A stretch of 64,000 nucleotides of DNA, from assembly GCA_963855995.1 (NCBI GenBank), contig OY979722.1, positions 2,976,001-3,040,000 on the forward strand. Direction: 5' to 3'. The position numbers were made by a program, and so were the translations under genes. How positions within the stretch are numbered: position 1 is the stretch's first letter; every line of letters begins with the position of its first letter. The DNA is from Muricea muricata. Its lineage: Eukaryota > Cnidaria > Anthozoa > Malacalcyonacea > Plexauridae. A model generated the notes under the pieces. It saw nothing but the letters and a program-made list of their open reading frames with translations. It ran no database searches and was not told the origin of the DNA. Below are positions 7,691 through 47,200 of this stretch, in pieces.

Positions 7691-7696
7691 GCCCAG

Positions 7697-8586
7697 GTGT
7701 CGTCACGGCAGCCCCGCGTCGTGGTTGTGGGTCCCACACAAAGTGGAAAAACGTATTTTGTCCAACAAATTTTGGAAAACAATCGTATCGTGTATGAAGA
7801 GCAAAAGAGTATTGGCATTTTTTGGTACTACAATCAATGGCAAGAATGTTATGAAAAGTTGAAAAAGTCTCTCGGTAAAAGCATCCGATTTGAAAGAGGT
7901 GTGCACGAACTGACTGAAGATCTGAGTGAAATCAATGCCCGGTACAATAACACCATCATCCTAGACGATTTGATGGCTGAAGCGACAGACAGTCCTGTGG
8001 TATCTCGACTGTTTACCCAAGGCCGCCATCGAAACGCTTATTGCTGCAAAACATGTTTCCGAAGGGGAAACATAATACAGATATCAGCCAAAATGCCCAG
8101 TACTTGGCTCTCTTCCGAAGTCCTAGCAATAGAACACAAATCGGAATTATTGCAGAACGCATGTTTGACAAGAATAGAGGGTACTTTATGAATGCTTATT
8201 ACAAGGAGACTGAAAAACCGTATGGATACTTGTTGGTGGATAACAAACCCGGCACACTACCCGATAATCAAATTCTTGCAGACCTATTTGGGGAATGCTA
8301 TGCTTATCACTTCGGTGTAAACAGTACTGAGCCTACACGTGTGGAAACCAAGCCTGTAGGCAAACACAGCACAGCAACCAAAAACACCTCTTCAAGGAAG
8401 AAGCCTGTGCAAACCGTCACCTGGTCGGATGTCCCAAACGACGGGTGGCATAAATACACCTTGAGCGCACCGGAGGTCCGTAAGATTTCCGAAGGATATG
8501 TTATCATCGAAATGTACAACACATCGTGTAATACGAGTTATCAGCCTGTCCGTGGAGGTGTTGAGATCACTGGCGAAAATTATTGA
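7697..8586 (+). pseudogene. P-loop ATPase of the TIR element, frameshifted
   Basis: Seen: a Walker A motif GPTQSGKT at residues 12-19 of the frame opening at 7697, a hydrophobic strand ending ILDD (Walker B) at residues 88-91, then a FTQGRHRN-type segment. The frame then changes at about 8035-8041, where several bases appear lost, and coding continues in the next frame to TGA 8584-8586. The first codon is GTG, not a eukaryotic start, so the original ATG was probably mutated. Known or recalled: this fold resembles packaging or translocating ATPases of the FtsK-HerA/A32 kind, and the family is repeated in cnidarian genomes. The viral-packaging role is an inference. The C-terminal region after about 8370 is basic and Ser/Thr-rich. 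Confidence 0.65.
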
Positions 8587-9085: not shown

Positions 9086-9671
9086 ATGATATGTGTAGCG
9101 ATACAATGAAATACGCTACGTTTCGCTACGATTCGGCTGAAGTGGAAAACGACCTTAATGCGTGTCATTGAAGTATAGTAGAATACTACCTGCAGTGGAC
9201 CACAACGTTTAATTGAGATTTCCTTTTCAGATAGTTTATTTTTAAGCACACGCCACGGCTTAAATTAGTTGTTGGTTATAATTTACAAGTATACACATCG
9301 CGCACTCCTTTGTTAAGCATTGTCTTGCAAAAAAATTAAAGGGAAAATAGTTAAAGTCAATTTACATTTCAGATCTTGAGCATGAATGAGTGACCCAGTC
9401 TTATATTGGCTTTGGTGTGAATTAGAAGTTCGTCAGGTTCAAGTCTTCCTTCGGCCTTTTGCAAAATTTTTGGCTCAAGTAAAGAAAAAATCGCTTAAAG
9501 TCAATAATTTACATCGCATACCCAAGCATGGAATGTGTTGGGCGGTTGTACAGGTTTTGGTGGGAATTACCAGTTGCACTGGTTCAAATCTCGATCGTGA
9601 AAGTCTTTTGCAAAAATAAACAAACAAACAAAATTGGTTAATTCTATTTCAGAACCATCCTCAGAGATATG

Positions 9672-9938
9672 AAAAACTAGATTCATATTAATCTGGCACT
9701 GCAGAGAATAACGAAAAATTCGCTGTCTCGGGCGGGATTCGAACTCGCATCTTCGGGTTTCTAGACCGCCGTCCTACCAATTGAGCTATCGAGTCAACTG
9801 GGATTGGTAGCGAGTCTTATCCAATTTAAATGCACGAAATATTTCGTGACGACTTAACGCTTGGCTTTAGGACGCGCAGTGTTTGAAACAATCAGCAGTG
9901 TTCTCTGCAGTGTCAGATTAATATAAATCTAGTTTTTT
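9672..9938. mobile_element. Foldback element carrying a tRNA-like sequence
   Basis: Imperfect inverted ends of about 36 bp (aaaactagattcatattaat at the left and its complement at the right) enclose a tRNA-like segment on the - strand. It is inserted in the left arm of the tRNA-like array. No ORF is present. Confidence 0.65.
9725..9795 (-). pseudogene. tRNA pseudogene or tRNA-derived segment
   Basis: Read on the - strand, the 71-nt segment starts gactcgatagctcaattgg (A-box) and contains gagttcgaatccc (B-box). The T-arm pairs with one mismatch and the acceptor arm pairs 5 of 7. The anticodon stem is short and irregular around ctagaaa, so an isotype cannot be assigned with confidence. It is more likely a tRNA-derived part of the surrounding foldback element than a working tRNA. 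Confidence 0.5.
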
Positions 9939-10810
9939 AAAATTGGTTAAAGTCAACAATTTACGTCTCAATTTCAAGCATGAACAAGTGGTTTAGTGGT
10001 ACAGGAATTGGTATAAACTGCCAGTTGCTCTGGTTCAAATCTCGGTGAAGTTTTTCGCAAACAAATGTATGAACGAGTGGCCGAATGGTACAGGGTTTGG
10101 TGTGAATACTAATTGCTTGGGTTCAAATATCGTTGAAGCCCGTTTTTTTCAAAAAACGGCTTAAAATTAAGAAAAAATGGTTAAAGTTAATAAGTTACCT
10201 CTTCGCTTACGGCTTGGACAGGTGGTCTAGTGGTACAAGCTTTCTTGTGAAATACTAATTGCTTGGGTTCAAATCTCGTTGAAGCTTTTTGGGAAAAAAT
10301 GGCTTAAAATAAAGAAAAAAAATGGTTAAAGTTATTAAGATACCTCTCCGCTTACGGCTTGGATGAGTGGTCTAGTGGTGCCGGGTTTGGTGTGAAATAC
10401 TAAATGTTTGGGTTCAAATATCGTTGAAGCTTTTTTCAAAAAATAGCTTAAAATAAAGAAAAAATGGTTAAAGTTAATAAGATACCTTTCCGCCTACGGC
10501 TTGGACAGGTGGTCTAGTGGTACAGGGTTTGGTGTGAAATACTAATTGCTTGGGCTCAAATCTCGTTTAAGCTTTTTGGAAAAAAATGGCTTAAAAGAAA
10601 GAAAAAAAATGGTTAAAGTTAATAAGTTACCTCTTCGCTTACGGCTCGTACAGGTGGTCTAGTGGTACAAGCTTTCGTGTGAAATACAAATTGCTTGGGT
10701 TCAAATATCGTTGAAGTTTTTTGCAAAAAATAGCTTAAAATAAAGAAAAAATGGTTAAAGTTAATAAGTTGCCTCTCCGCTTGCGGCATAGACGGGTGGT
10801 CTGGTGGTCA

Positions 10811-11535
10811 GACAAAATGATGATGACTTTGAGAAAAAGTGGAAAATTTACAGTTTCAACCTGCGTCTTGTTTTGAAGCATATTTTGCATTCTCAAGATG
10901 TTTTTTTTTTCGGAATTTGCTTTTTACTTTACTTTTTTAAATTGTCGGCTGGTCATGGTTTTTGAGTCTCTAAAGTCTTGCATGCTTTTTAAAGACCAAG
11001 TCCTGGTCGTTGATCAAGTGGTATTTCATTTATAGGAGTTCGCTTCTCTATCTCTTGATTGCATTACCAAGCATAACACGCCTGGGGATAAAAACGCATC
11101 GATGCTATCTACTCTGTCTGTTGTATTCTCTTTTGGTCATTAATACACTATTCACTCTTTCCCATCCCCACACTTTGGCATTTTATTGGTAAATAACTTC
11201 GAAGCTGCACATTGCAATTGAGCTTTAAGATTCGGTACGCCCAAACCACCTTGTGTTGGTGTTAAAGTCACAAGTTAACATATAGTTCGTCCGAGAGGGG
11301 TTTTTCTTGACCAAAAATTTGTTGCGGAAGAAGTATTTTCACGCGAACGCTTCGTGTTTCCGTATCTTCAAAAGCCTCTGTCAATTGTTCGCATAACGAA
11401 TAAGTAAATTTAGACTTGTACGACTCAACGCGTTTGAGTGAATGCTTAGATCAAAAGTTGAAGATTTGGGTGAAGTTAAAAAAAATCGTCTTAGACAATT
11501 TTTGCCTTATTTTCAAGCCAGAATTTTTACAAACG
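10811..11535. other. Unique spacer between opposed halves of the tRNA-like array
   Basis: No A-box/B-box monomers and no conserved ORF are seen. The left array ends in a diverged monomer near 10,800. The first - strand monomer starts near 11,535 (cactggaccctcattcatgc). A T9 run lies near 10,900. Confidence 0.6.
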
Positions 11536-12892
11536 ATTTTGGTAGGTTTGAACCATGCACGCGCTAATTAATTTATAGCGAGTATACCCTGCACTGGACC
11601 CTCATTCATGCCTGAACAACAGTCCTGGATTATTGACTTTAAGCATTTTTTCTTTATTTCAAGCCAATTTTTTTGCAAATGGCTTCAGCGAAATTTGAAC
11701 CAGAGCAATTGAAACTTTACACTAAAGCCTTTTACACTAAAGTATTTGCCACTGGGCTATACATTCATGCTTGCACTTGAAAAATAAATTATTGACTTTA
11801 AGCATTTTTTCTTTTATTTCAAGCAAAAAATTTTTGCATTTGGCTTCAGGGAGATTTGAACCTGAGCAACTTAAACTTTACACTAAAGTGTTTGCCACTG
11901 GGCTACACATTCATGCTTGGACTTAAACTATAAATTATTGACTTTATTCTTTTTTTCTTTATTTCAAGCAAAAAATTTTTGCAAATGGCTTCAGCGAGAT
12001 TTGAACCAGAACAACTGAAACTTTACACTAAAGCCATTTACACTAAAGTCTTTGCCACTGGGCTACACATTCATGCTGGGACTTGAAATATAAATTATTG
12101 ATTTTATTCTTTTTTCTTTATTTCAAGCCAAATTTTTTTTGCAAATGGCTTCAGCGAAATTTGAACCAGAGCAACTGAAACTTTACACAAAAGCCTTTTA
12201 CACTAAAATCTTTGCCACTGGGCTACACATTCATGCTTGGACTTAAACTATAAATTATTGACTTTATTCTTTTTTTCTTTATTTCAAGCAAAAAATTGTT
12301 GCAAATGGCTTCAGCGAGATTTGAACCAGAACAACTGAAACTTTACACTAAAGCCATTTACACTAAAGTCTTTGCCACTGGACTACACATTCATGCTCGA
12401 ACTTGAAATATAAATTATTGACTTTATTCTTTTTTCTTTATTTCAAGCCAAATTTTTTGCAAAAGGATGCAGCGAGATTTGAACCAGAGTAACTGAAACT
12501 TTACACCAAAGCCTTTGCCACTGCGCTACACATTCATGCATGGAGTTGAAATATAAATTATTGACTTTATTCTTTTTTCTTTATTTCAAGCCAAATTTTT
12601 TCCAAAAGGCTTCAGCGAGATTTGAACAAGAGCAACTGAAACTTTACACTAAAGCCTTTTACACTAAAGTTTTTGCCACTGGGCTACACATTCATGTTTG
12701 AACTTAAAATATAAATTATTGACTTTACTCTTTTTTCTTTACTTCAAACCAAACTTTTTGCAAATGGCTTCAGCGAGATTTGAACCTGAGTAACTGAAAC
12801 TTTACACCAAAGCCTTTGCCACTGGGCTACACATTCATGCTTGGACTAAAAATATAAATAATTGACTTTATTCTTTTTTTCTTTATTTCAAG

Positions 12893-14430
12893 CCAAATTT
12901 TTTGCAAAAGGCTTCAGCGAGATTTGAACCTGAGCAACTGAAATTTTACACCAAAGCCTTTGCCACTGGGCTACACACTCATGCATGGGCTTGAAATATA
13001 AATTATTGACTTTATTCTTTTTTTCTTTATTTCAAGCCAATTTTTTTGCAAAAGGCTTCAGCGAGATTTGAACCTGAGCAACTGAAACTTTACACTAAAT
13101 CCTTTTACACTAAAGTCTTTGCCACTGCGCTACACATTCATGCTTGGACTTGAAATATAAATTACTGACTTTAAGAATTTTTTCCTTATTTCAAGCAAAA
13201 ATTTTTTGCAAATGGCTTCAGCGAGATTTGAACCAGAGCAACTGAAACTTTACACTAAAGCCTTTTACACTAAAGTTTTTGCCACTGGGCTACACATTCA
13301 TGCTTGAACTTGAAATATAAATTATTGACTCGATTCTTTTTTCTTTATTTCAAGCCAAATTTTTTGCAAAAGGCTTCAGCGAGATTTGAACCTGAGCAAC
13401 TGAAATTTTACACCAAAGCCTTTGCCACTGGGCTACACATTCATGCATGGAGTTGAAATATAAATTATTGACTTTATTCTTTTTTCTTTATTTCAAGCCA
13501 ATTTTTTTGCAAAAGGCTTCAGCGAGATTTGAACCTGAGCAACTGAAACTTTACACTAAAGCCTTTTACACTAAAGTCTTTGCCACTGGGCTACACATTC
13601 ATGCTTGGACTTGAAATTTATATTACTGACTTTAAGAATTTTTTCCTTATTTCAAGCAAAAATTTTTTGCAAAAGGCTTCGGCGAGATTTGAACCAGAGC
13701 AACTGAAACTTTACACTAAAGCTGATGTTACACGAGACGATTTGTAACGACGATTTTTAGCGATACGTGTTGTCATTCGCGCAACGCTACTTCGACATCA
13801 CCATGTTACACAGGTCAATTTTTAGCGATTTTTAGCGAATTCACTCGATATCTTGGTTGTTTACGTCCAATGACTTCTAGCATTGCATTCTGGGAAGGCG
13901 TTGGGCAAAAAATCGACGACGAACCTGTTACACGAATCAACTTGCTGAAAATTCGTCATTCTGCGTTGCGAGTTTTTGAAGCTGGATCAAAAACTTGCAA
14001 CGCGTTGCCATATCCGAAAATCGTTTTTCTTGACCTGTTACACGTATCAATTTTTCGCGCATCAGCGTATCGCTAAAAATCATCTCGTGTAACATCAGCT
14101 TAAAGCCTTTTACACTAAAGTCTTTGCCACTGGGCTACACATTCATGCTTGGACTTAAATATAAATTATTGACTTTATTCTTTTTTCTTTATTTCAAGCC
14201 AATTTTTTTGCAAAAGGCTTCAGCGAGATTTGAACCTGAGTAACTGAAACTTTACACCAAAGCCTTTGCCACTGGGCTACACATTCATGCATGGAGTTGA
14301 AATATAAATTATTTACTTTATTCTTTTTTCTTTATTTCAAGTAAAATTTTTTTGCAAATGGCTTCAGCGAGATTTGAACAAGAGCAACTGAAACTTTACA
14401 CTAAAGCCTTTTACACTAAAGTCTTTGCCA
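12893..14430. repeat. Large intra-array duplication, copy 1
   Basis: About 1.54 kb, comprising several monomers plus the inserted MITE, recurs 3,286 bp downstream at 16,179-17,716 with only scattered single-base differences. Sequence outside these limits is different, so this is a recent block duplication and not simple array drift. Confidence 0.8.
13720..14100. mobile_element. 381-bp MITE inserted in the array, copy 1
   Basis: Ends agctgatgttacacgagacg and its inverted complement frame the element. TAA at 13717-13719 and 14101-14103 is the target duplication, and the pre-insertion monomer sequence cactaaagcc can be read across it. Internal repeats of tttttagcgat are seen. A 68-codon ORF inside is a by-product of the sequence and has no family resemblance. 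Confidence 0.9.
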
Positions 14431-16178
14431 CTGGGCTATACATTCATGCTTGCACTTGAAAAATAAATTATTGACTTTAAGCATTTTTTCCCTTATTTAA
14501 GCAAAAAATTTTTGCATTTGGCTTCAGGGAGATTTGAACCTGAGCAACTTAAACTTTACACTAAAGTCTTTGCCACTGGGCTACACATTCATGCTTGGAC
14601 TTGAAAAATAAATTATTGACTTTATTCTTTTTTTCTTTATTTCAAGCAAAAATTTTTTGCAAATGGCTTCAGCGAGATTTGAACCAGAGCAACTGAAACT
14701 TTACACTAAAGCCTTTTACACTAAAGTCTTTGCCACTGGGCTACACATTCATGCTTGAACTTGAAATATAAATTATTGACTTTATTCTTCTTTCTTTATT
14801 TCAAGCAAAAAATTTTTGCAAACGGTTTCAGCGAGATTTGAACCGGAGCAACTGAAACTTTACGCTAAAGCCTTGGCCACTGGGCTAGACATGCATTCAT
14901 GCTTGGGATTGAATTATAAATTATTGACTTTATTCTTTTTTTCCTTATTTCAAGCAAAAAATTTTTGCAAAAGGCTTCAGCGAGATTTGAACCAGAACAA
15001 CTGAAACTTTACACTATAGCCATTTACACTAAAGTCTTTGCCACTGGGCTACACATTCATGCTCGAACTTGAAATATAAATTATTGACTTTATTCTTTTT
15101 TCTTTATTTCAAGCCAAATTTTTTGCAAAAGGATGCAGCGAGATTTGAACCAGAGTAACTGAAACTTTACACTAAAGCCTTTGCCACTGGGCTACACATT
15201 CATGCTTGGACTTGAAATATAAATTATTGACTTTATTCTTTTTTCTTTATTTCAAGCCAAATTTTTTGCAAAAGGCTTCAGCGAGATTTGAACATCAGCA
15301 ACTGAAACTTTACACTAAAGCCTTTTACACTAAAGTCTTTGCCACTGGGCTACACATTCATGTTTGAACTTAAAATATAAATTATTGACTTTACTCTTTT
15401 TCCTTTATTTCAAGCCAAACTTTTTGCAAATGGCTTCAGCGAGATTTGAACCTGAGCAACTGAAACTTTACACCAAAGCCTTTGCCACTGAGCTACACAT
15501 TCATGCATGGACTTAAAATATAAATTATTGACTTTATTCTTTTTTTTTTATTTCAAGTAAAAATTTTTTGCAAATGGCTTCAGCGAGATTTGAACCAGAG
15601 CAACTGTAACTTCACACTAAAGCCTTTTACACTAAAGTCTTTGCCACTGCGCTACACATTCATGTTTGAACTTGAAATATAAATTATTGACTTTTTTCTT
15701 TTTTCTTTATTTCAAGCCAAATTTTTTGCAAAACGCTTCAGCGAGATTTGAACCTGAGTAACTGAAACTTTACACCAAAGCCTTTGCCACTGGGCTACAC
15801 ATTCATGCATGGGCTTGAAATATAAATTATTGACTTTATTCTTTTTTTCTTTATTTCAAGCCAATTTTTTTGCAAAAGGCTTCAGCGAGATTTGAACCTG
15901 AGCAACTGAAACTTTACACTAAAGCCTTTTACACTAAAGTCTTTGCCACTGGGCTACACATTCATGCTTGGACTTGAAATATAAATTACTGACTTTAAGC
16001 ATTTTTTCCTTATTTCAAGCAAAAATTTTTTGCAAATGGCTTCAGCGAGATTTGAACCAGAGCAACTGAAACTTTACACTAAAGCCTTTTACACTAAAGC
16101 CTTTACCACTGGGCTACACATTCATGCTTGAACTTGAAATATAAATTATTGACTCGATTCTTTTTTCTTTATTTCAAG

Positions 16179-17716
16179 CCAAATTTTTTGCAAAAGGCTT
16201 CAGCGAGATTTGAACCTGAGCAACTGAAATTTTACACCAAAGCCTTTGCCACTGGGCTACACACTCATGCATGGGCTTGAAATATAAATTATTGACTTTA
16301 TTCTTTTTTTCTTTATTTCAAGCCAATTTTTTTGCAAAAGGCTTCAGCGAGATTTGAACCTGAGCAACTGAAACTTTACACTAAATCCTTTTACACTAAA
16401 GTCTTTGCCACTGCGCTACACATTCATGCTTGGACTTGAAATATAAATTACTGACTTTAAGAATTTTTTCCTTATTTCAAGCAAAAATTTTTTGCAAATG
16501 GCTTCAGCGAGATTTGAACCAGAGCAACTGAAACTTTACACTAAAGCCTTTTACACTAAAGTTTTTGCCACTGGGCTACACATTCATGCTTGAACTTGAA
16601 ATATAAATTATTGACTCGATTCTTTTTTCTTTATTTCAAGCCAAATTTTTTGCAAAAGGCTTCAGCGAGATTTGAACCTGAGCAACTGAAATTTTACACC
16701 AAAGCCTTTGCCACTGGGCTACACATTCATGCATGGAGTTGAAATATAAATTATTGACTTTATTCTTTTTTCTTTATTTCAAGCCAATTTTTTTGCAAAA
16801 GGCTTCAGCGAGATTTGAACCTGAGCAACTGAAACTTTACACTAAAGCCTTTTACACTAAAGTCTTTGCCACTGGGCTACACATTCATGCTTGGACTTGA
16901 AATTTATATTACTGACTTTAAGAATTTTTTCCTTATTTCAAGCAAAAATTTTTTGCAAAAGGCTTCGGCGAGATTTGAACCAGAGCAACTGAAACTTTAC
17001 ACTAAAGCTGATGTTACACGAGACGATTTGTAACGACGATTTTTAGCGATACGTGTTGTCATTCGCGCAACGCTACTTCGACATCACCATGTTACACAGG
17101 TCAATTTTTAGCGATTTTTAGCGAATTCACTCGATATCTTGGTTGTTTACGTCCAATGACTTCTAGCATTGCATTCTGGGAAGGCGTTGGGCAAAAAATC
17201 GACGACGAACCTGTTACACGAATCAACTTGCTGAAAATTCGTCATTCTGCGTTGCGAGTTTTTGAAGCTGGATCAAAAACTTGCAACGCGTTGCCATATC
17301 CGAAAATCGTTTTTCTTGACCTGTTACACGTATCAATTTTTCGCGCATCAGCGTATCGCTAAAAATCGTCTCGTGTAACATCAGCTTAAAGCCTTTTACA
17401 CTAATGTCTTTGCCACTGGGCTACACATTCATGCTTGGACTTAAATATAAATTATTGACTTTATTCTTTTTTCTTTATTTCAAGCCAATTTTTTTGCAAA
17501 AGGCTTCAGCGAGATTTGAACCTGAGTAACTGAAACTTTACACCAAAGCCTTTGCCACTGGGCTACACATTCATGCATGGAGTTGAAATATAAATTATTG
17601 ACTTTATTCTTTTTTCTTTATTTCAAGTAAAATTTTTTTGCAAATGGCTTCAGCGAGATTTGAACAAGAGCAACTGAAACTTTGCACTAAAGCCTTTTAC
17701 ACTAAAGCCTTTGCCA
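16179..17716. repeat. Large intra-array duplication, copy 2
   Basis: This is the partner of 12,893-14,430 at an offset of 3,286. It includes the second copy of the 381-bp MITE and the same monomer variants, for example the rare cactgcgctaca A-box variant. Confidence 0.8.
17006..17386. mobile_element. 381-bp MITE inserted in the array, copy 2
   Basis: It is almost identical to 13,720-14,100, with the right end differing by one base (atcgtctcg against atcatctcg). It has the same monomer context and TAA flanks. It arose by the 3,286-bp-offset block duplication and not by a second transposition. Confidence 0.9.
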
Positions 17717-17824
17717 CTGGGCTACACATTCATGCTTGAACTTGAAATATAAATTATTGACTCGATTCTTTTTTCTTTATTTCAAGCCAAATTTTTTGCA
17801 AAAGGCTTCAGCGAGATTTGAACC

Positions 17825-18310
17825 AGAGCAACTGAAACTTTACACTAAAGCCTTTTACACTAAAGTCTTTGCCACTGGGATACACATTCATGCTTGGACT
17901 TGAAATATAAATTACTGACTTTAAGAATTTTTTCCTTATTTCAAGCAAAAATTTTTTGCAAATGGCTTCAGCGAGATTTGAACCAGAGCAACTGAAACTT
18001 TACACTAAAGCCTTTTACACTAAAGCCTTTGCCACTGGGCTACACATTCATGCTTGAACTTGAAATATAAATTATTGACTCGATTCTTTTTTCTTTATTT
18101 CAAGCCAAATTTTTTGCAAAAGGCTTCAGCGAGATTTGAACCAGAGCAACTGAAACTTTACACTAAAGCCTTTTACACTAAAGTATTTGCCACTGGGCTA
18201 TACATTCATGCTTGCACTTGAAAAATAAATTATTGACTTTAAGCATTTTTTCTTTTATTTCAAGCAAAAAATTTTTGCATTTGGCTTCAGGGAGATTTGA
18301 ACCTGAGCAA
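17825..18310. repeat. Smaller intra-array duplication (offset 1,690)
   Basis: The same three-monomer order, including the rare cactgggatacaca variant and the gcactgggctatacattc variant, recurs at 19,515-20,000. This is a second, independent block duplication in the core. Confidence 0.65.
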
Positions 18311-20938
18311 CTGAAACTTTACACTAAAGCCTTTTACACTAAAGTCTTTGCCACTGGGCTACACATTCATGCTTGGACTTACATATAAATTATTGACTTT
18401 ATTCTTTTTTTCTTTATTTCAAGTAAAAATTTTTTGCAAAAGGCTTCAACGAGATTTGAACCTGAGCAACTGAAACTTTACACCAAAGCCTTTGTCACTG
18501 GGCTACACATTCATGCATGGGCTTGAAATATAAATTATTGACTTTATTCTTTTTTCTTTATTTCAAGCCAAATTTTTTGCAAAAGGCTTCAGCGAGATTT
18601 GAACCTGAGTAACTGAAACTTTACACCAAAGCCTTTGCCACTGGGCTACACATTCATGCATGGAGTTTAAATATAAATTATTGACTTTATTCTTTTTTCT
18701 TTATTTCAAGTAAAATTTTTTTGCCAATGGCTTCAGCGAGATTTGAACAAGAGCAACTGAAACTTTACACTAAAGCCTTTTACACTAAAGTCTTTGCCAC
18801 TGGGCTACACAATCATGTTTGAACTTAAAATATAAATTATTGACTTTATTCTTTTTTTCTTTATTTCAAGTAAAAATTTTTTGCAAAAGGCTTCAGCGAG
18901 ATTTGAACCTGAGCAACTGAAACTTTACACCAAAGCCTTTGCCACTGGGCTACACATTCATGCATGGGCTTGAAATATAAATTATTGACTTTATTCTTTT
19001 TTTCTTTATTTAAAGCCAATTTTTTTGCAAATGGCTTCAGCGAGATTTGAACCTGAGCAACTGAAACTTTACACTAAAACCTTTTACACTAAAGTCTTTG
19101 CCACTGGGTTACACATTCATGCTTGGACTTAAATATAAATTATTGACTTTATTCTTTTTTCTTTATTTCAAGCCAAATTTTTTCCAAAAGGCTTCAGCGA
19201 GATTTGAACCAGAGCAACTGAAACTTTACACTAAAGCCTTTTACACTAAAGTATTTGCCACTGGGCTATACATTCATGTTTGAACTTAAAATATAAATTA
19301 TTGACTTTATTCTTTTTTTCTTTATTTCAAGTAAAAATTTTTTGCAAAAGGCTTCAGCGAGATTTGAACCTGAGCAACTGAAACTTTACACCAAAGCCTT
19401 TGCCACTGGGCTACACATTCATGCATGGGCTTGAAATATAAATTATTGATTTTATTCTTTTTTTCTTTATTTCAAGCCAATTTTTTTGCAAAAGGCTTCA
19501 GCGAGATTTGAACCTGAGCAACTGAAACTTTACACTAAAGCCTTTTACACTAAAGTCTTTGCCACTGGGATACACATTGATGCTTGGACTTGAAATATAA
19601 ATTACTGACTTTAAGAAGTTTTTCCTTATTTCAAGCAAAAATTTTTTGCAAATGGCTTCAGCGAGATTTGAACCAGAGCAACTGAAACTTTACACTAAAG
19701 CCTTTTACACTAAAGCCTTTGCCACTGGGCTACACATTCATGCTTGAACTTGAAATATAAATTATTGACTCGATTCTTTTTTCTTTATTTCAAGCCAAAT
19801 TTTTTGCAAAAGGCTTCAGCGAGATTTGAACCAGAGCAACTGAAACTTTACACTAAAGCCTTTTACACTAAAGTATTTGCCACTGGGCTATACATTCATG
19901 CTTGCACTTGAAAAATAAATTATTGACTTTAAGCATTTTTTCTTTTATTTCAAGCAAAAAATTTTTGCATTTGGCTTCAGGGAGATTTGAACCTGAGCAA
20001 CTTAAACTTTACACTAAAGTGTTTGCCACTGGGCTACACATTCATGCTTGGACTTGAAAAATAATATATGGACTTTATTCTTTTTTTCTTTATTTCAAGC
20101 AAAAATTTTTTGCAAATGGCTTCAGCGAGATCTGAACCAGAGCAACTGAAACTTTACACTAAAGCCTTTTACACTAAAGTCTTTGCCACTGGGCTACACA
20201 TTCATGCTTGAACTTGAAATATAAATTATTGACTTTATTCTTTTTTCTTTATTTCAAGCCAATTTTTTTGCAAAAAGCTTCAGCGAGATTTGAGCCAGAG
20301 CAACAGAAACTTTACACTAAAGTCTTTGCCACTGGGCTACACATTCATGCTTGAACTTGATATATAAATTATTGACTTTATTCTTTTTTCTTTATTTCAA
20401 GCCAAATGTTTTGCAAACGGCTTCAGTGAGATTTGAACCAGAGCAACGGAAACTTTACACTGAAGCCTTTGCCACTGGGCTGCACATTTATGCTTGGACT
20501 TAAACTATAAATTATTGGCTTTATTCTTTTTTTCTTTATTTCAAGCAAAAAATTTTTGCAAATGGCTTCAGCGAGATTTGAACCAGAACAACTGAAACTT
20601 TACACTAAAGCCTTTTACACTAATGTCTTTGCCACTAGGCTACACATTCATGCTTAAACTTGAAATATAAATTGTTGACTTTACCCTTTTTCCTTTATTT
20701 CAAGCCAAATTTTTTGCAAATGGCTCCAGCAAGATTTGAACCAGAACAACTGAAACTTTACACTAAAGTCTTTGCCACTGGGCTACACATTCATGCTTGA
20801 ACTGGAAATATAAATTATTGACTTTACTCTTTTTTCTTTATTTCAAGCCAAATTTTTTGCAAAAGACTTCAGCGAGATTTGAACCCGAGCAACTGAAACT
20901 TTACACTAGAGCCTTAGTCATACTGGACCACTCATTCA

Positions 20939-23500
20939 CTAAAGTCAATAATTTACATCGCTTACTCGAACATGAACAAGTGGTCCGGTGGTAAAATCAT
21001 TGTTGGGAATCAGCAGTTAGTCTGGTTCAAAACTCGCTGATGTCTTTTTCAAAAAATTTTGGATAAAATGAAGAAAAAATTGGCTAAAGTCAATAATTTA
21101 CATCACTCGCTCAAGCCTAAACAAGTGGTCTTGTGGTAAAATCAATGTTGGGAATCAGCAGTTCTACACTTTGGTTCAAATCTCGCTGAGTTCTTTTTCA
21201 AAAAATTTTGCATAAAATGAAGAAAAAATTGGGTAAAGTCAATAATTTACATCACTTGCTAAAACATGAGCAAGTGGTCTGGTGGTAAAATCATTGTTAT
21301 GAAGTAGCACTTCTACACTCTGGTTCAAATCTCGTTGATGTCTTCTTCAAAAAATTTTGCATAAAATGAAGAAAAAATTGGTTAAAGTCAATAATTTACA
21401 CCACTTGCTCAAGTATGAACAAGTGGTCTGGTGGTAAGATCATTGTCATGAATTAGCAGTTCTACACTCTGGTTCAAATCTCCCTGATGTCTTTTTCAAA
21501 AAATTTTGCATAAAATGAAGAAAAAATTGGTTAAAGTCAATAATTTACATCACTTGCTCAAGTATGAACAAGTGGTCTGGTGGTAAGATCATTGTCATGA
21601 ATTAGCAGTTCTACACTCTGGTTCAAATCTCCCTGATGTCTTTTTCAAAAAATTTTGCATAAAATGAAGAAAAAATTGGTTAAAGTCAATAATTTACATC
21701 ACTTGCTCAAGTATGAACGAGTGGTCTGGTGGTAAAATCATTGTTATGAATTAGCACTTCTACACTCTGGTTCAAATCTCCCTGATTTCTTTTTCAAAAA
21801 ATTTTGCATAAAATGAAGAAAAAATTGGCTAAAGTCAATAATTTACATCACTTTCTCAAGTATGAACAAGTGGTCTGGTGGTTAAATCATTGTTGGGACT
21901 CAGCAGTTCTACACTCTGGTTCAAATCTCGCTGATGTCTTTTTCAAAAAATTTTGCATAAAATGAAGAAAAAATTGGGTAAAGTCAATAATTTACATCGT
22001 TTATTCAAGCATGAACAAGTGGTCTGGTGATAAAATCATTGTTATGAATTAGCACTTCTACGCTCTGGTTCAAATCTCCTTGATGTCTTCTTCAAAAAAT
22101 TTTGCATAAAATGAAGAAAAAAATTGGTTAAAGTCAATAATTTACATCTCTTGCTCAAGTATGAACAAGTGGTCTGGTGGTAAAATCATTGTCATGAATT
22201 AGCAGTTCTACACTCTGGTTCAAATCTCCCTGATGTCTTTTTCAAAAAATTTTGCATAAAATGAAGAAAAAATTGGCTAAAGTCAATAATTTACAGCACT
22301 TGCTCAAGTATGAACAAGTGGTCTGGTGGTTAAATCATTGTTGGGAATCAGCAGTTGTACACTCTGGTTCAAATCACGCAGATGTCTTTTTCAAAAAATT
22401 TTGCATAAAATGAAGAAAAAATTGGGTAAAGTCAATAATTTACATCACTTATTCAAGCATGAACAAGTGGTCTGGTGGTTAAATCATTGTTGGGAATCAG
22501 CAGTTCTACACTCTGGTTCAAATCACGCAGATGCCTTTTTCAAAAAATTTTGCATAAAATGAAGGAAAAAATTGGTTAAAGTCAATAATTTACATCTCTT
22601 GCTCATGTATGAACAAGTGGTCTGGTGGTAAAATCATTGTCATGAATTAGCAGTTCTACACTCTGGTTCAAATCTCCCTGATGTCTTTTTCAAAAAATTT
22701 TGCATAAAATGAAGAAAAAATTGGCTAAAGTCAATAATTTACAGCACTTGCTCAAGTATGAACAAGTGGTCTGGTGGTTAAATCATTGTTGGGAATCAGC
22801 AGTTCTACACTCTGGTTCAAATCACGCAGATGTCTTTTTCAAAAAATTTTGCATAAAATGAAGAAAAAATTGGGTAAAGTCAATAATTTACATCACTTAT
22901 TCAAGCATGAACAAGTGGTCTGGTGGTTAAATCATTGTTGGGAATCAGCAGTTCTACACTCTGGTTCAAATCACGCAGATGCCTTTTTCAAAAAATTTTG
23001 CATAAAATGAAGAAAAAATTGGGTAAAGTCAATAATTTACATCACTTATTCAAGCATAAACAAGTGGTCTGGTGGTTAAATCATTGTTGAGAATCAGCAG
23101 TTCTACACTCTGGTTCAAATCTCACTGATGTCTTTTGCAAAAAATTTTTGGGTAAAATAAAAACAAAGCATTGGTTAAAGTCGATAATTTATACCCCGTG
23201 CACAAGCATGAATGAGTGGTCGAGTGTTAAAAGCATTGGTTAGATTTAGCAAATAGTCTGGTTCAAATCTTGCAAAAATTGTGGTTTAAAATAAAGAAAA
23301 AAAATTAAAGTCAATCGTTTATATGTCAAGTCCATGCATGAATGAGTGGTCCATTTACAAAGGCGTTTGTGTGAATTTTCAGTTGCTCTGATTTAAATCT
23401 CACCGAAATCTTTTGCAAACATTTTGGCTTAAAATAAAGAAAAAAGAAAGAAAAAAGGTTAAAGTCAACCATTTGCATCTCAAGTCCAAGCATGAATGCA
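20939..23500 (+). repeat. tRNA-derived tandem array, right + strand flank (about 17 monomers)
   Basis: The 149-bp monomers are very regular between 21,090 and 23,130. Each has A-box-like aagtggtctggtggtaaaat, B-box-like ctggttcaaatctc, then gatgtcttttt (T5) and an A-rich spacer ending in gttaaagtcaataatttaca. A three-monomer higher-order unit of 448 bp repeats (22,326 against 22,774). The orientation is opposite to the core, and the switch lies at about 20,938. The last units (23,150-23,500) are diverged. Confidence 0.85.
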
Positions 23501-24595
23501 TGCACTCGTTTTAAAGAGCGTTTTAAAAAACCCCGAATCCAACGTTTGCACATCATTAATAAAGGCATTTACTATTGATATGATGGAAGATCAGGCTCTT
23601 AGCCATTGAATGACATGGTTTTTGTACAATAAGCATTGGAATCGAACAGGAGTTGGATAAAAACTCGTAGTGAAAATTGCAATTTTTTCACCTCTCAAGA
23701 ATGTTAGTAAGAGCCTGATTATGTATGATCCCGCTTACCTGGGATTAAATAGATTTTGAAGTAATGAAATAAGTCATAGTTTATGATATAAAAAGTGTTT
23801 AATTTCTGATTGTTTGAGATTTTTGTTTTTGCCAGGATATGAAATAAAATTATTAAAATATATATGTTTTATTGGTCAATTCTGAAAGCAGTCAAGATCA
23901 TTTTACCCTTCATTTAAACCCGGGTAAACGGGATCATATGATCAGCCCCGTATTATATTAGAGGTTAGATAGACTGTTTGAGGTTAGAAAAACACATCTC
24001 ATTTAAGCTTTAAGCGTAAGCGAGGTAGAACAGAAGCAAATTGCAAGGACAATCATTTCTGTTATGTCCTTGAAAACGCCAGAGTCAGGGGCGTAACTCC
24101 TGGGGGTGTAGGGAGGTGTGACACCTCTACCCCTTCCAAAATTACAATTGACAGGCATGTATCAATAACTGATCCGGAAAAAGGTGGAGGAAAATCTAAA
24201 TATAAAAGTTAAGAGGACCCTGAAAGTGCCATTTCTATCAATGTAAGGTTTCAAATTTTCATAAATCTTCAGGCCTGTCATTCATTGTTTTCGTAGCAAT
24301 CTAGATCACACACCATATTTTTTTTACCCTCAAAAATAAGTTAGGGCAAAAATAAGTTTCGGCCCCCTAAAGTTCATATATTTTATAAAGTTACATCCTT
24401 GCCAAGAGTAACACTCACGCTTTTGTTTTCTCGACTCTGTTTTCAATAGCCCAAGGTTTGTGCCTGCGAGCCATTCAGCGGAGTGCTTCGGAAGAGATAA
24501 TATTGTTTAGCGCTTAAACAAAAGCAAGATCGATGGCAAAAATGTGTTTATTTTGTAGTATTTTTTAGTGTGTTTTTCTGTCCAAAGCGAACGAA
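23501..24595. other. Intergenic region upstream of CPSF1
   Basis: It holds the family 1 MITE at 23,711-23,949. A possible second foldback lies at about 24,078-24,405: ggggcgtaactcc at the left, with the diverged complement agttacatccttgcc at the right. The last 190 bp before the CPSF1 ATG is presumably promoter and 5' UTR. No TATA box is obvious at a suitable distance and no other gene is seen. Confidence 0.5.
23711..23949. mobile_element. MITE, family 1, copy 2
   Basis: The left end gcctgattatgtatgatccc and right end gggatcatatgatcagcccc match the element at 5834-6148. The interior is shorter and also related (gaaataagtcatagttta in both). The target duplication is eroded. Confidence 0.8.
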
Positions 24596-43676
<19,081 letters not shown>

Positions 43677-44229: not shown

Positions 44230-47200
44230 TCACTGTATCCATTCATAACGCCTCAGAAGCCCAATTGATGTGGCAGTTGCGCCGACAAGCAGCGAGAGGA
44301 ACAAAGGTATCCGCCACGCACGCCTTGCGTGCCAATTTTTTCTCCTCTTCTGCCATTCCAATGGAAGACTTGCGGCACCGGTAACAACTTTCATTAAAAT
44401 TCTTGCGCCTTCGTTGATGCTGTCGTTCTCCAATAAAGTCGGAATTTCATTGCCACACCAGCATATGTAGAGGTCCGGGCGAATTAACACGAAGTCCTAA
44501 ACAAATTAATAAACACAGGAAATTATTTTTTGCCTAAACGAAAGATTTAAAACATCAATACTTCGAAGCCTCATCGTAGCCATAGAGTGAAACATGATTG
44601 GCTGTGGGGTGCTACAACGCATTTTGATTGGTCTAGAAGTTTTGGCGGGAAAATGTATTCATTTGTCAATGTTGTCGGTGAAATTAAAAAGAAAGATACT
44701 TTTAATGTCAATTTTAACAGATGAAACAACGCTAAATGCTGCATGGGTAAGGTGTTTTTCTATTCTTTTACCAGTTGTGTTAACGTTTCCTTATTTTTAA
44801 TGTTAAAAATTTCATTGTTTGTATCACAGAATAAACAATAAACAGAAGTGTTACTCGAGTCGGAAGCTTTGAGAAGTTTGTGTCCCACGTATGTCGCATT
44901 ACACATCTCATTATGCAGGTTCTCGCCAGTCAATGGACCATTCCCCAATTAGACAAACTTTTAAATTTGAAAACAATTTTAGCACAATTGGAAAGAGCTT
45001 CCTAAATTTAGTGAAATTGTAAAGTTTGGTTGTAAAATATTGTAAAATGTCGAAAATATAGTGATGTAAAGTTTGCGAATTTTGTATACTTTTGTATTAC
45101 GCGGGAAAAAGTGTTACCACATTACCACATAGTGGTAACGCTTTCCGTTCGTAATACAAAACAATACAAAATTCGCAAACTTTACGGGGCCATATTTTTC
45201 ACATTTTACAATATTTTGCAACCAACCATTTTGTGGCAAAATAGAAACGCTGATCTGGCTGTTCTGCCATTATTCTGCCCAGTCTATTGCATGAAAATAG
45301 GCAGACATGTTGCACAGCTGAGTGGCCCTATTCTTTATTCGCTATACTGTGGTTGGTATGTTCACTATTTTTGGTCCCTTACCATCCCTTGGTAGAGTGT
45401 TTTCAACTGTTCATCTTCTAGGGAAACAACCTTAAATAACAAAGCATTGGTCAAACCAGTAGTCAGTGTTGGTCGAATTCATTTACTTGAGTAAAAAAAA
45501 GTAGTATTTATTTGAGACGAAATAATTTTTAATGAAGTACCTTTTTTGTAATCAAGTACGATTTTTGGTCAATATTTACTTTAAATTTTACACCGTTGAC
45601 TAGTTACTTATTCTCAATGCGGAGTCAGCACTGAACAGACTAGTGAAAACGTGCTTGACACAGCCAGGCTATTAATCCATCGCGGGGATAAATGTACTAA
45701 ATTCTAAGTGTAGTACTTTGACCTAAGGATACTTTTACTCAAGTAAACTTAAGTTTTATCACCTTGAGTGGAATACCACAATGAGCGGCTGCCGACATTA
45801 GTGGATCGTAGCTTTTTTCTGAAGGTTTAAGGTAAAGAAGTGTGAACGCTGAACCTAGAATACAAAGAGAAAACATTTATCTTCAAACCTACAAATCACT
45901 TGTAGACATCATTGGATAAGGCTTGCTACTTTCGGGTGCCACAATACGATCACTCAATGGTCATAGCTAAAGGGGATGGACGAGATGTAGCTTTTCAAAA
46001 TGACTGCTGTTTTTTAAGATTCTTAAAACGAGAACGAACCAACCAGTCATTTATAACATTCCTAAACGGGCTAAACCTCACTTTAATCCTTAGCCTAACC
46101 TTCATTTAGAAATGTTAGAAGTGTCTGGTTGTTGATTCGTTCTTGTTTTAAGAATCTTGTAAAACTGCCACCATCTTGAAAACCTACATCTCGTTTATCC
46201 CTTTTAGTATGAACATCACTCAGTCAGGGACGAACGTATCGAATTTAGCTGGCGGACGGGGTGCAATATGAAAATGCATGGCACCGACTGTGTAGCCAAT
46301 AACGGTTGACACTAAGACAGTATACTAACAATAACTGGTTTCACGAAAGTCGTACTCGAGCACTGTGTGGCAATGCGATCTGTCACCAAGTAAAAAATCA
46401 GCAATGTTTGAAGCCACAATCGTGGCAAATATTCTGGGGACAATGAAGCTCATAAAAAAATGAATGACAAGATTATTATACACTATTTTCCCCAATTCCC
46501 CCTGTACAATGTTGTTTCTCGAATGTTGATTTGGCCAGGTTTGGTATAATGATGATTAGTCAGGGGGTAGGAGGGGGAATTGGGTTTTTTATACAGGAAG
46601 TAGGAGGGGGAATTGGGTTTTTTATACAGGAAGTAGGAGGGGGAATTGGGTTTTTTATACTTGTATGTAGAAAATTGTAATTAAGACAATTTTCGTACGC
46701 GCTGTCCGCGAAAACTTTTGCCAGGATTGTAGTCTCCAAACACATAGCGCCCCAACCCATGTTTACGTTAACACCAACCTAGTTTGTCGTAGAGTTTGCT
46801 GCCATCTTTAAACTGGTAGTGAGGTGCCCGGCATCCGGGTAATGCTGTTGGCGTGTAGTTCGTCGGGTCTTGTGGGGGTAATGGTATACTGGACGGGATA
46901 CATAAAGGTGACGAGTCCAATCTCAGTCCAAAGAGGATGGCTAAAGAGAGAAGACGCTTGGGTGAGTTAGCACGGATAAAACTGTCCTATGAACTTGGAC
47001 TTTAGATGAACTTGATCAGAAGAGGCCATGAGAGGGAAATGTTTACAAATTTTTGAATGCACTCACCAGAAAAACCCATGTTCACATTAGACGAATCAAT
47101 GAATCTTCTCAAGATAAAACTGAATGGTGGAGTCCGAAAAAGAAATTTAAGGATTCCAGTATAGTTTTGAAACACGTAGAACATCCGTCTGACGCGGTCC

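What the first reader, a model, noticed from the sequence alone, without database searches (positions are those of the whole stretch)
9350..23500. Giant array of about 85 tRNA-derived monomers with Pol III-like boxes
Every monomer keeps an A-box-like and a B-box-like motif at about 40-60 nt spacing while the spacers drift. That is what one expects if the boxes are functional or if the unit spreads through Pol III transcripts. Many monomers also carry T4-T5 just after the B-box. The array could produce a swarm of 90-110-nt RNAs without anticodons. It is neither a normal tRNA cluster nor a dispersed SINE, but a tRNA-derived satellite.
Basis: partly seen in the sequence, partly recalled or inferred. 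Interest (0 to 1): 0.85.

Follow-up and report, generated by a model that had tools for sequence, protein, structure and literature searches.

The report
tRNA-derived satellite array, three blocks
A 14-kb stretch of about 84 head-to-tail copies of a decayed tRNA-like unit that still carries Pol III promoter motifs, one of which changes unusually slowly; such tRNA-like satellites are already described in amphibians, so this is a new example rather than a new kind of thing.

Summary
The array is real: 86 profile hits, about 84 monomers, between 9352 and 23517, with nothing convincing elsewhere in the window. It is three blocks in two orientations (+ / - / +), 57 of 82 aligned monomers on the minus strand, block consensuses 72-75% identical, interrupted by four stretches of other DNA. 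A-box/B-box pairs are far beyond chance: 63 (62 in monomers, one in an inserted tRNA gene) against 0.17 in shuffles. The monomer resembles a tRNA, best Cys, on one strand only (73 of 82 monomers above the 95% null, 0 of 82 on the other strand), but no longer folds as one. Two unreported islands are also slow: TAAAGTCAATAATTTA, about 40 nt upstream of the A-box, and the A-rich tail. T4+ follows the B-box closely in 52 of 82. Growth is by DNA duplication, not retroposition of each unit. Best reading: a tRNA-derived satellite like Rana/polIII, with a possibly active Pol III promoter; transcription was not testable. New member of a known kind.

The parts
9352..10858 (+). Block P1: nine monomer hits, plus strand, period about 145 nt; of the eight aligned units the first four are eroded (61-69% to the block consensus), the next four 89-91%; the insert 9646-9938 lies within
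   Evidence: nhmmer hits to 10811, profile coverage to 10858, TRF, identity table
10859..11498 (.). Non-monomer spacer between the plus block P1 and the minus block M
   Evidence: gap in profile coverage
11498..20938 (-). Block M: minus-strand monomers, two length classes (about 145 and about 160 nt; the longer has a 15-nt direct duplication, unit AGGCTTTAGTGTAAA, between the boxes)
20940..23517 (+). Block P3: plus-strand monomers of about 149 nt; abuts block M head to head at 20938/20940; last units eroded
21383..21398 (+). Example monomer: upstream slow island TAAAGTCAATAATTTA, about 40 nt before the A-box
   Evidence: 1.69 changes/site, P=0.00015; spacing to the A-box 40 nt in 71 of the 75 monomers where both were found
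21424..21434 (+). Example monomer: A-box TGGTCTGGTGG
21471..21481 (+). Example monomer: B-box GGTTCAAATCT, the slowest-evolving 11-column window
21492..21496 (+). Example monomer: T5, possible Pol III terminator
15130..15201 (-). tRNA-like part of a minus-strand monomer (A-box 15194-15184, B-box 15151-15141, T4 15130-15127); the only one of five monomers scanned in short stretches with any tRNA model match, and that far below threshold
   Evidence: Rfam tRNA model positions 1-71, 11.6 bits against gathering score 29, E=8.5; none
12875..14177 (.). Segmental duplication copy 1 (2 mismatches, no gaps in 1303 nt against 16161-17463)
16161..17463 (.). Segmental duplication copy 2
13719..14101 (.). 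MITE-like element inside a monomer: 32-nt terminal inverted repeats (AAGCTGATGTTACACGAG...), TAA on either side, open stop to stop over 116 codons; a second copy lies in the segmental duplication at about 17005-17387
   Evidence: flanking TAA read from the sequence
9646..9938 (-). Insertion carrying a tRNA-Ser(AGA) gene that passes the tRNA thresholds (9722-9796) between 37-nt inverted arms, flanked by two copies of AAAATTGGTTAA

Best explanation
A satellite (tandem) repeat whose ~145-160-nt monomer arose from a tRNA (best match Cys) or a tRNA-headed SINE-like retrocopy: an upstream AT-rich segment, a 72-nt tRNA-like head with A- and B-box, often a T-run, then an A-rich tail. The tRNA fold has been lost. 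Copies were multiplied and homogenised at the DNA level (unequal exchange, segmental duplication, at least one inversion), block by block. Slow evolution of the B-box and of an upstream island, at the place where a TFIIIB/TATA-like element would lie, suggests that Pol III recruitment was retained for at least part of the array's history, with potential short RNAs of about 80-110 nt. Shown: tandem structure, blocks, motif excess, one-strand tRNA similarity, uneven rates, duplication. Inferred: tRNA ancestry, Pol III binding. Not shown: any transcription or function. The confidence given is for the tRNA-derived, DNA-amplified satellite; the retained-promoter step alone I put at about 0.4, and the first rival shares everything but that step.
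For: Array structure. Box pairs 63 (62 in monomers) against 0.17 by chance. B-box 1.55 changes per site against 3.74 for the 122 non-box columns, P=0.0008 as a pre-named region, 0 of 10,000 base-matched draws as low, identical in the three block consensuses that are 72-75% alike overall. Upstream island 1.69 per site, P=0.00015, 40 nt from the A-box in 71 of 75. DNA-level amplification: mean identity 0.86 within M and 0.89 within P3 against 0.60-0.63 between blocks, five M monomer sequences occurring twice, a 1303-nt duplication with 2 differences. Precedents: PMC10702118 Background, PMC9659126 table passages.
Against: The A-box is not slower than average (P=0.50; base-matched 0.20). The B-box P is 0.08 if every window is counted as a candidate; scored with its degenerate consensus it ranks 3 of 135, with 5.9% of windows as low; in block P3 alone it is only rank 27 of 135. 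No tRNA model match above threshold in any monomer, and 4 of 5 monomers scanned in short stretches have none even at E 10. T4 close to the B-box is missing in 30 of 82. The A-rich tail is also slow, so slow columns need not mean promoter function. Tests on consensus rows were mixed: the M consensus P=0.03, one edge monomer P=0.64, the P1 match is a 24-nt Glu-like D-arm only, and the P3 alignment puts the A-box out of register; the best-scoring single monomer there had been picked after its Rfam match.
Confidence: 0.72

Rival explanations
1. An inert satellite: the tRNA-like boxes are a fossil of the founder, and slow columns reflect recombination, low mutability of A/T runs, or DNA-structure or protein-binding motifs, not Pol III. 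(Shares the satellite and tRNA-origin parts of the best explanation.)
For: A-box at average rate, A-rich tail also slow, T4 missing close to the B-box in 30 of 82, folds of five candidate RNAs no better than shuffles (z -1.24 to -0.09). A and T columns are slower in general (2.87 and 3.11 against 4.65 and 4.78 for C and G). The slow tail and the slow upstream island are neighbours across the monomer junction.
Against: The B-box window is the slowest of 134, stays so with base-matched controls and ranks 2 of 135 in the M block alone; the upstream island stays slow with base-matched controls (0.0018) and lies 40 nt from the A-box in 71 of 75.
Confidence: 0.45
2. A cluster of small-RNA genes under selection, like the tandem 4.5SH RNA genes of mouse: each monomer is an external TATA-like element plus A/B boxes plus terminator.
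For: Upstream island, B-box and T-run in the right order and roughly the right distances; 4.5SH/4.5SI genes have TATA-like boxes at -31/-24, and the authors ascribe the stronger dependence of 4.5SH on that box to its atypical box A (PMC7279448, abstract and section 3.1). A possible stem AAAGGCTTTAGTG / CGCTGAAGCCTTTT: 13 of 14 pairs in the M consensus, 12 of 14 in P1, 10 of 14 in P3.
Against: The supposed RNA body (columns 54-85 and 97-106) evolves at or above the average rate (4.0 and 4.5 changes per site); the stem pairs as well out of register in P3 (0.576 in register, 0.600 at +3) and nearly so in P1 (0.705 against 0.670 at +1), though clearly better in register in M (0.848 against 0.648); five individual RNAs fold no better than shuffles (the consensus of M had z -2.98 by a cruder shuffle, P1 -1.02, P3 0.24).
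Confidence: 0.1
3. A true SINE array: separate SINE copies inserted next to each other by retroposition.
For: tRNA-like head and A-rich tail (AATAAA in the tail half of 52 of 82) is the layout of a short SINE.
Against: Units abut, and no target-site duplications are seen between them by eye in the alignment (no formal search); the right edge falls inside a monomer, no convincing copy lies in the other 49.8 kb of the window, and a multi-monomer stretch is duplicated.
Confidence: 0.05

Closest known systems
Amphibian tRNA-like Pol III tandem families: Rana/polIII, PolIII/TAN (Cynops), Hy/polIII (Hydromantes), Xenopus OAX / satellite I (as described in PMC10702118, Background read; Hy/Pol III and Satellite 1 also in a table of PMC9659126, passages)
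   Same: Tandem repeat with a tRNA-like segment; no confirmed parent SINE; PolIII/TAN is reported capable of in vitro transcription
   Different: Monomers here are shorter (about 145-160 against about 200-360 nt or more), in inverted blocks, with a slow upstream island at fixed distance; host unidentified; no transcription data. PMC10702118 itself calls these cases inconclusive as SINE-satellite links, doubts the tRNA origin of Hy/polIII (no box B) and finds the OAX unit too long for a proper satellite
SINE-derived satellites (sSats) of squamate reptiles (PMC10702118, abstract, Background and Discussion read)
   Same: Satellite built from part of a tRNA-headed element; similar unit lengths; homogenisation; mixed monomer patterns
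   Different: sSats are defined by similarity to a known SINE family, mostly with a longer terminal unit; no parent SINE was found here
4.5SH RNA (tandem genes) and tRNA-derived 4.5SI RNA of rodents (PMC7279448, abstract and section 3.1; PMC3440375, passages; PMC10137851, listing only)
   Same: About 100-nt Pol III RNAs with A/B boxes and an upstream TATA-like element; [quoted passage not shown]
   Different: Those are demonstrated RNAs; here the RNA body is not conserved and no transcript is known
Small elements with Pol III promoters that form tandem arrays (Cassandra, PMC7215508, listing only; Helenus-type, PMC10886601, passages)
   Same: Tandem arrays of an element with a small-RNA-gene promoter
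   Different: Those are LTR elements; LTRs and primer-binding sites were not searched for here, but the monomer is only about 145-160 nt and carries an A-rich tail

Membership tests
Satellite DNA | Long head-to-tail tandem arrays of a non-coding unit | tested here: met
   86 hits in 14.2 kb, contiguous apart from four inserts or spacers
Satellite DNA | Concerted evolution: copies more alike within than between arrays | tested here: met
   0.86 within M, 0.89 within P3, 0.60-0.63 between blocks; P1 is poorly homogenised at 0.63
Satellite DNA | Heterochromatic location and high genomic abundance | not testable with these tools
   No genome held
tRNA-derived Pol III satellite (Rana/polIII, OAX type) | tRNA-like sequence within the unit | tested here: met
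   Sense strand above the 95% null in 73 of 82 monomers, opposite strand in 0 of 82 (yardstick tRNAs recalled). Weaker on consensus rows: P1 and P3 exceed 400 draws but not over both arms in register, M P=0.03, edge monomer P=0.64
tRNA-derived Pol III satellite (Rana/polIII, OAX type) | A-box and B-box at working distance | tested here: met
   62 pairs in monomers against 0.17 expected
tRNA-derived Pol III satellite (Rana/polIII, OAX type) | Pol III transcription | not testable with these tools
   Sequence only
tRNA gene cluster | Units fold as tRNA with anticodon | tested here: not met
   ARAGORN 0 of 82 monomers at default; no Rfam tRNA match in array monomers at E 10, 1 weak match among 5 monomers scanned in short stretches
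SINE-derived satellite (sSat) | Similarity to a dispersed SINE family in the same genome | tested here: inconclusive
   No convincing copy in the 49.8 kb around the array; genome not held
SINE | Dispersed copies with target-site duplications | tested here: inconclusive
   None in the rest of the window, but only the window could be searched; units in the array abut directly (by eye)
4.5SH-like RNA gene cluster | Conserved RNA body | tested here: not met
   Segments between and after the boxes change at 4.0-4.5 per site, above the average

The most novel reading that the evidence does not exclude
The array is a working battery of Pol III promoters in which the external TATA-like island and the B-box, not the A-box or the RNA body, are kept by selection: the act of Pol III/TFIIIC recruitment (for example boundary or chromatin-loop formation, or nucleosome exclusion) would be the function, and the RNAs by-products.
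Probability: 0.12. Interest if true: 0.72.

Novelty: new member of a known kind. Interest (0 to 1): 0.38.

Why it matters
It adds an example of a satellite built from a tRNA-like Pol III unit, with 79 comparable copies in one locus, so promoter constraint can be measured inside a satellite. The unequal constraint (B-box and upstream island slow, A-box not) makes a concrete prediction about which contacts of the Pol III machinery matter. I did not find this array in print: the answered paper searches (listings seen, five papers opened) showed as comparable cases the amphibian and squamate ones; the library is incomplete and the host is not identified.

Tried and rejected
Intact tRNA genes in the monomers: rejected. 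Relaxed ARAGORN settings were uninformative: they report 409 'tRNAs' in the window. Rfam miRNA, snoRNA and other sub-threshold matches in the array (3 besides the tRNA-Ser): chance level; a stretch of equal length outside the array gives 20 (many of those lie on a strong inverted repeat at 26.7 kb).

RNA hairpin AAAGGCTTTAGTG / CGCTGAAGCCTTTT: strong in block M and with two apparent double changes (A-T for T-A at columns 61/103 in 14 of 15 P3 copies; A-T for G-C at 58/106 in 2 of 8 P1 copies), but out-of-register pairing is as good in P3 and single RNAs fold no better than shuffles. Kept as a weak lead only.

Relatives elsewhere: three patterns from the monomer in viral contigs, one in prokaryote genome contigs and one pattern from the tRNA-Ser insert in viral contigs: 0 hits each. 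These collections are not of animals, so this says little. Host identity: 10 of the 29 ORFs listed were scanned against Pfam; one had matches (six families, all below their cut-offs). The cnidarian label stays unverified.

Rows dropped: 4 of 86 profile hits were too short to align (82 aligned); 3 of 82 (two fragments cut by the MITE-like insert, one truncated copy) were left out of the rate tests (79 used). The 53-monomer M set leaves out those three and one further junction copy (M11495). Spacing and length counts cover the 75 and 76 monomers in which the motifs were found. A- and B-box consensus strings are recalled, not taken from a call. The chance model is sampling from each sequence's own dinucleotides, not an exact shuffle.
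Full report
WHAT IS THERE. The region 9352-23517 is a satellite array. A three-seed profile gives 86 hits, all between 9352 and 23513; two monomers are each split in two by an inserted element, so about 84 monomers. A profile made from the 82 aligned monomers and run at maximum sensitivity gives 91 hits: 89 inside the array, three of them weak, and two outside at E 6.9 and 9.2. The array has three blocks: P1 (+, from 9352 to 10811 or, with the second profile, 10858; period about 145), M (-, 11498-20938, monomers of about 145 and about 160 nt, the longer with a 15-nt internal duplication) and P3 (+, 20940-23517, period about 149). M and P3 meet head to head. Four stretches within the coordinates are not monomer: 9629-9947, 10859-11498, 13737-14108 and 17023-17394.

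MOTIFS. With at most one mismatch in each box and 30-65 nt between them, A/B-box pairs number 63 in the array, 1 elsewhere in the window, and 0.17 on average (maximum 1) in 30 dinucleotide shuffles; one of the 63 is the inserted tRNA-Ser gene. The A-box is TAGCCCAGTGG in the M consensus and TGGTCT(A/G)GTGG in the plus blocks; the B-box is GGTTCAAATCT in the three consensuses and in 61 of 82 monomers. By an automatic scan the A-box consensus is exact in 67 of 82, one mismatch in 8, two or three in 7. T4 or longer begins within 14 nt after the B-box in 52 of 82. Predicted transcripts (assumed start 12 nt before the A-box, end at the first T4) are 78-108 nt in 67 and have no end nearby in 9 of the 76 monomers with both boxes located.

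RATES. I counted parsimony changes on a tree of 79 monomers. The 122 non-box columns average 3.74 changes per site, the B-box 1.55, the A-box 3.45. The B-box is the lowest of 134 eleven-column windows; as a region named in advance P=0.0008, with 0 of 10,000 base-matched draws as low, but P=0.08 if any window may be the minimum. With degenerate positions of the consensus scored leniently, the B-box ranks 3 and the A-box 29 of 135. The A-box is average: P=0.50, base-matched 0.20. In block M alone the B-box ranks 2 and the A-box 36 of 135; in P3, where changes are few, both rank 27. Two further slow islands were found: TAAAGTCAATAATTTA (columns 2-17; 1.69, P=0.00015, base-matched 0.0018) and the A-rich tail AAATAAAGAAAAAA (1.79, P=0.0016, base-matched 0.019); the linker between the upstream island and the A-box is the fastest part tested (5.94). 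The upstream island lies 40 nt before the A-box in 71 of the 75 monomers where both were found. If transcription starts roughly 10 nt before the A-box, as in tRNA-type genes (general knowledge), the island covers the -31/-24 position at which TATA-like boxes act in 4.5SH, 4.5SI, B1 and B2 genes (PMC7279448, abstract and section 3.1). That placement is inference.

ORIGIN. No monomer is a tRNA by ARAGORN or by Rfam thresholds. Scanned in short stretches, 1 of 5 monomers gives a weak full-length tRNA model match in the expected phase (15201-15130, 11.6 bits, E 8.5, gathering score 29), the other four none. Consensus rows gave a more mixed picture: P1 and P3 exceed all 400 null draws, but P1 through a 24-nt Glu-like D-arm and P3 with the A-box out of register; M has P=0.03, an edge monomer P=0.64; monomer 15092-15236, picked after its Rfam match, scores 40 against a null maximum of 32. 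So a tRNA origin is likely, Cys the best candidate, and the cloverleaf is lost.

HOW IT GREW. Mean identity is 0.86 within M, 0.89 within P3, 0.63 within the eroded P1, and 0.60-0.63 between blocks. Five M monomer sequences occur twice, and 12875-14177 repeats 16161-17463 with 2 mismatches in 1303 nt, carrying a MITE-like element along. Of six edge or junction monomers, five are 57-70% and one 81% identical to the overall consensus. All this points to DNA-level duplication and homogenisation; nothing seen indicates that single units arrived by retroposition.

RNA LEVEL. A stem between the segment after the A-box and the segment after the B-box is 13 of 14 paired in the M consensus, 12 of 14 in P1 and 10 of 14 in P3. 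In register it beats slid versions clearly only in M; P3 pairs as well 3 nt out of register. Five individual candidate RNAs fold no better than shuffles (z -1.24 to -0.09). I do not claim a structured RNA.

COMPARISON. Objects of the same kind are described for amphibians: Rana/polIII, PolIII/TAN of Cynops (capable of in vitro transcription), Hy/polIII of Hydromantes and OAX/satellite I of Xenopus; SINE-derived satellites are described for squamates (PMC10702118, abstract, Background and Discussion read; PMC9659126 passages). PMC10702118 regards the amphibian cases as inconclusive evidence for a SINE origin. The present array meets the sequence-level features of the first group; transcription is untested. 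It fails as a tRNA cluster; SINE parentage is open because the genome is not held. Functionally the nearest analogy is the tandem 4.5SH gene cluster, but the RNA body here is not conserved.

VERDICT. Corrections: three blocks in two orientations, A-box not specially conserved, two unreported slow islands, DNA-level amplification. New member of a known kind; modest interest, with a testable promoter prediction.

Noticed in passing
9646-9938 (tRNA 9722-9796, minus): Insert in the array with a tRNA-Ser(AGA) gene that passes ARAGORN and the Rfam threshold, between 37-nt inverted arms (95% complementary), flanked by two copies of AAAATTGGTTAA as if by a target-site duplication: possibly a mobile element that carries a tRNA gene.
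   Followed up: partly
13719-14101 and about 17005-17387: MITE-like element, 32-nt terminal inverted repeats, TAA flanks (as in PIF/Harbinger-type elements, recalled), open over 116 codons stop to stop (not searched); the second copy came with the segmental duplication.
   Followed up: partly
7691-8586 (+): Two overlapping open frames; the first has sub-threshold AAA/poxvirus-A32-type ATPase matches, suggesting a broken virus- or Polinton-type packaging ATPase relic.
   Followed up: no
26675-26856: Near-perfect 87-nt inverted repeat with 8 nt between the arms (95% complementary), and a second 54-nt inverted repeat at 26416-26562; sub-threshold miRNA-precursor matches. Probably fold-back elements.
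   Followed up: no
46567-46660: Perfect 33-nt tandem repeat, 2.8 copies at 100% matches.
   Followed up: no
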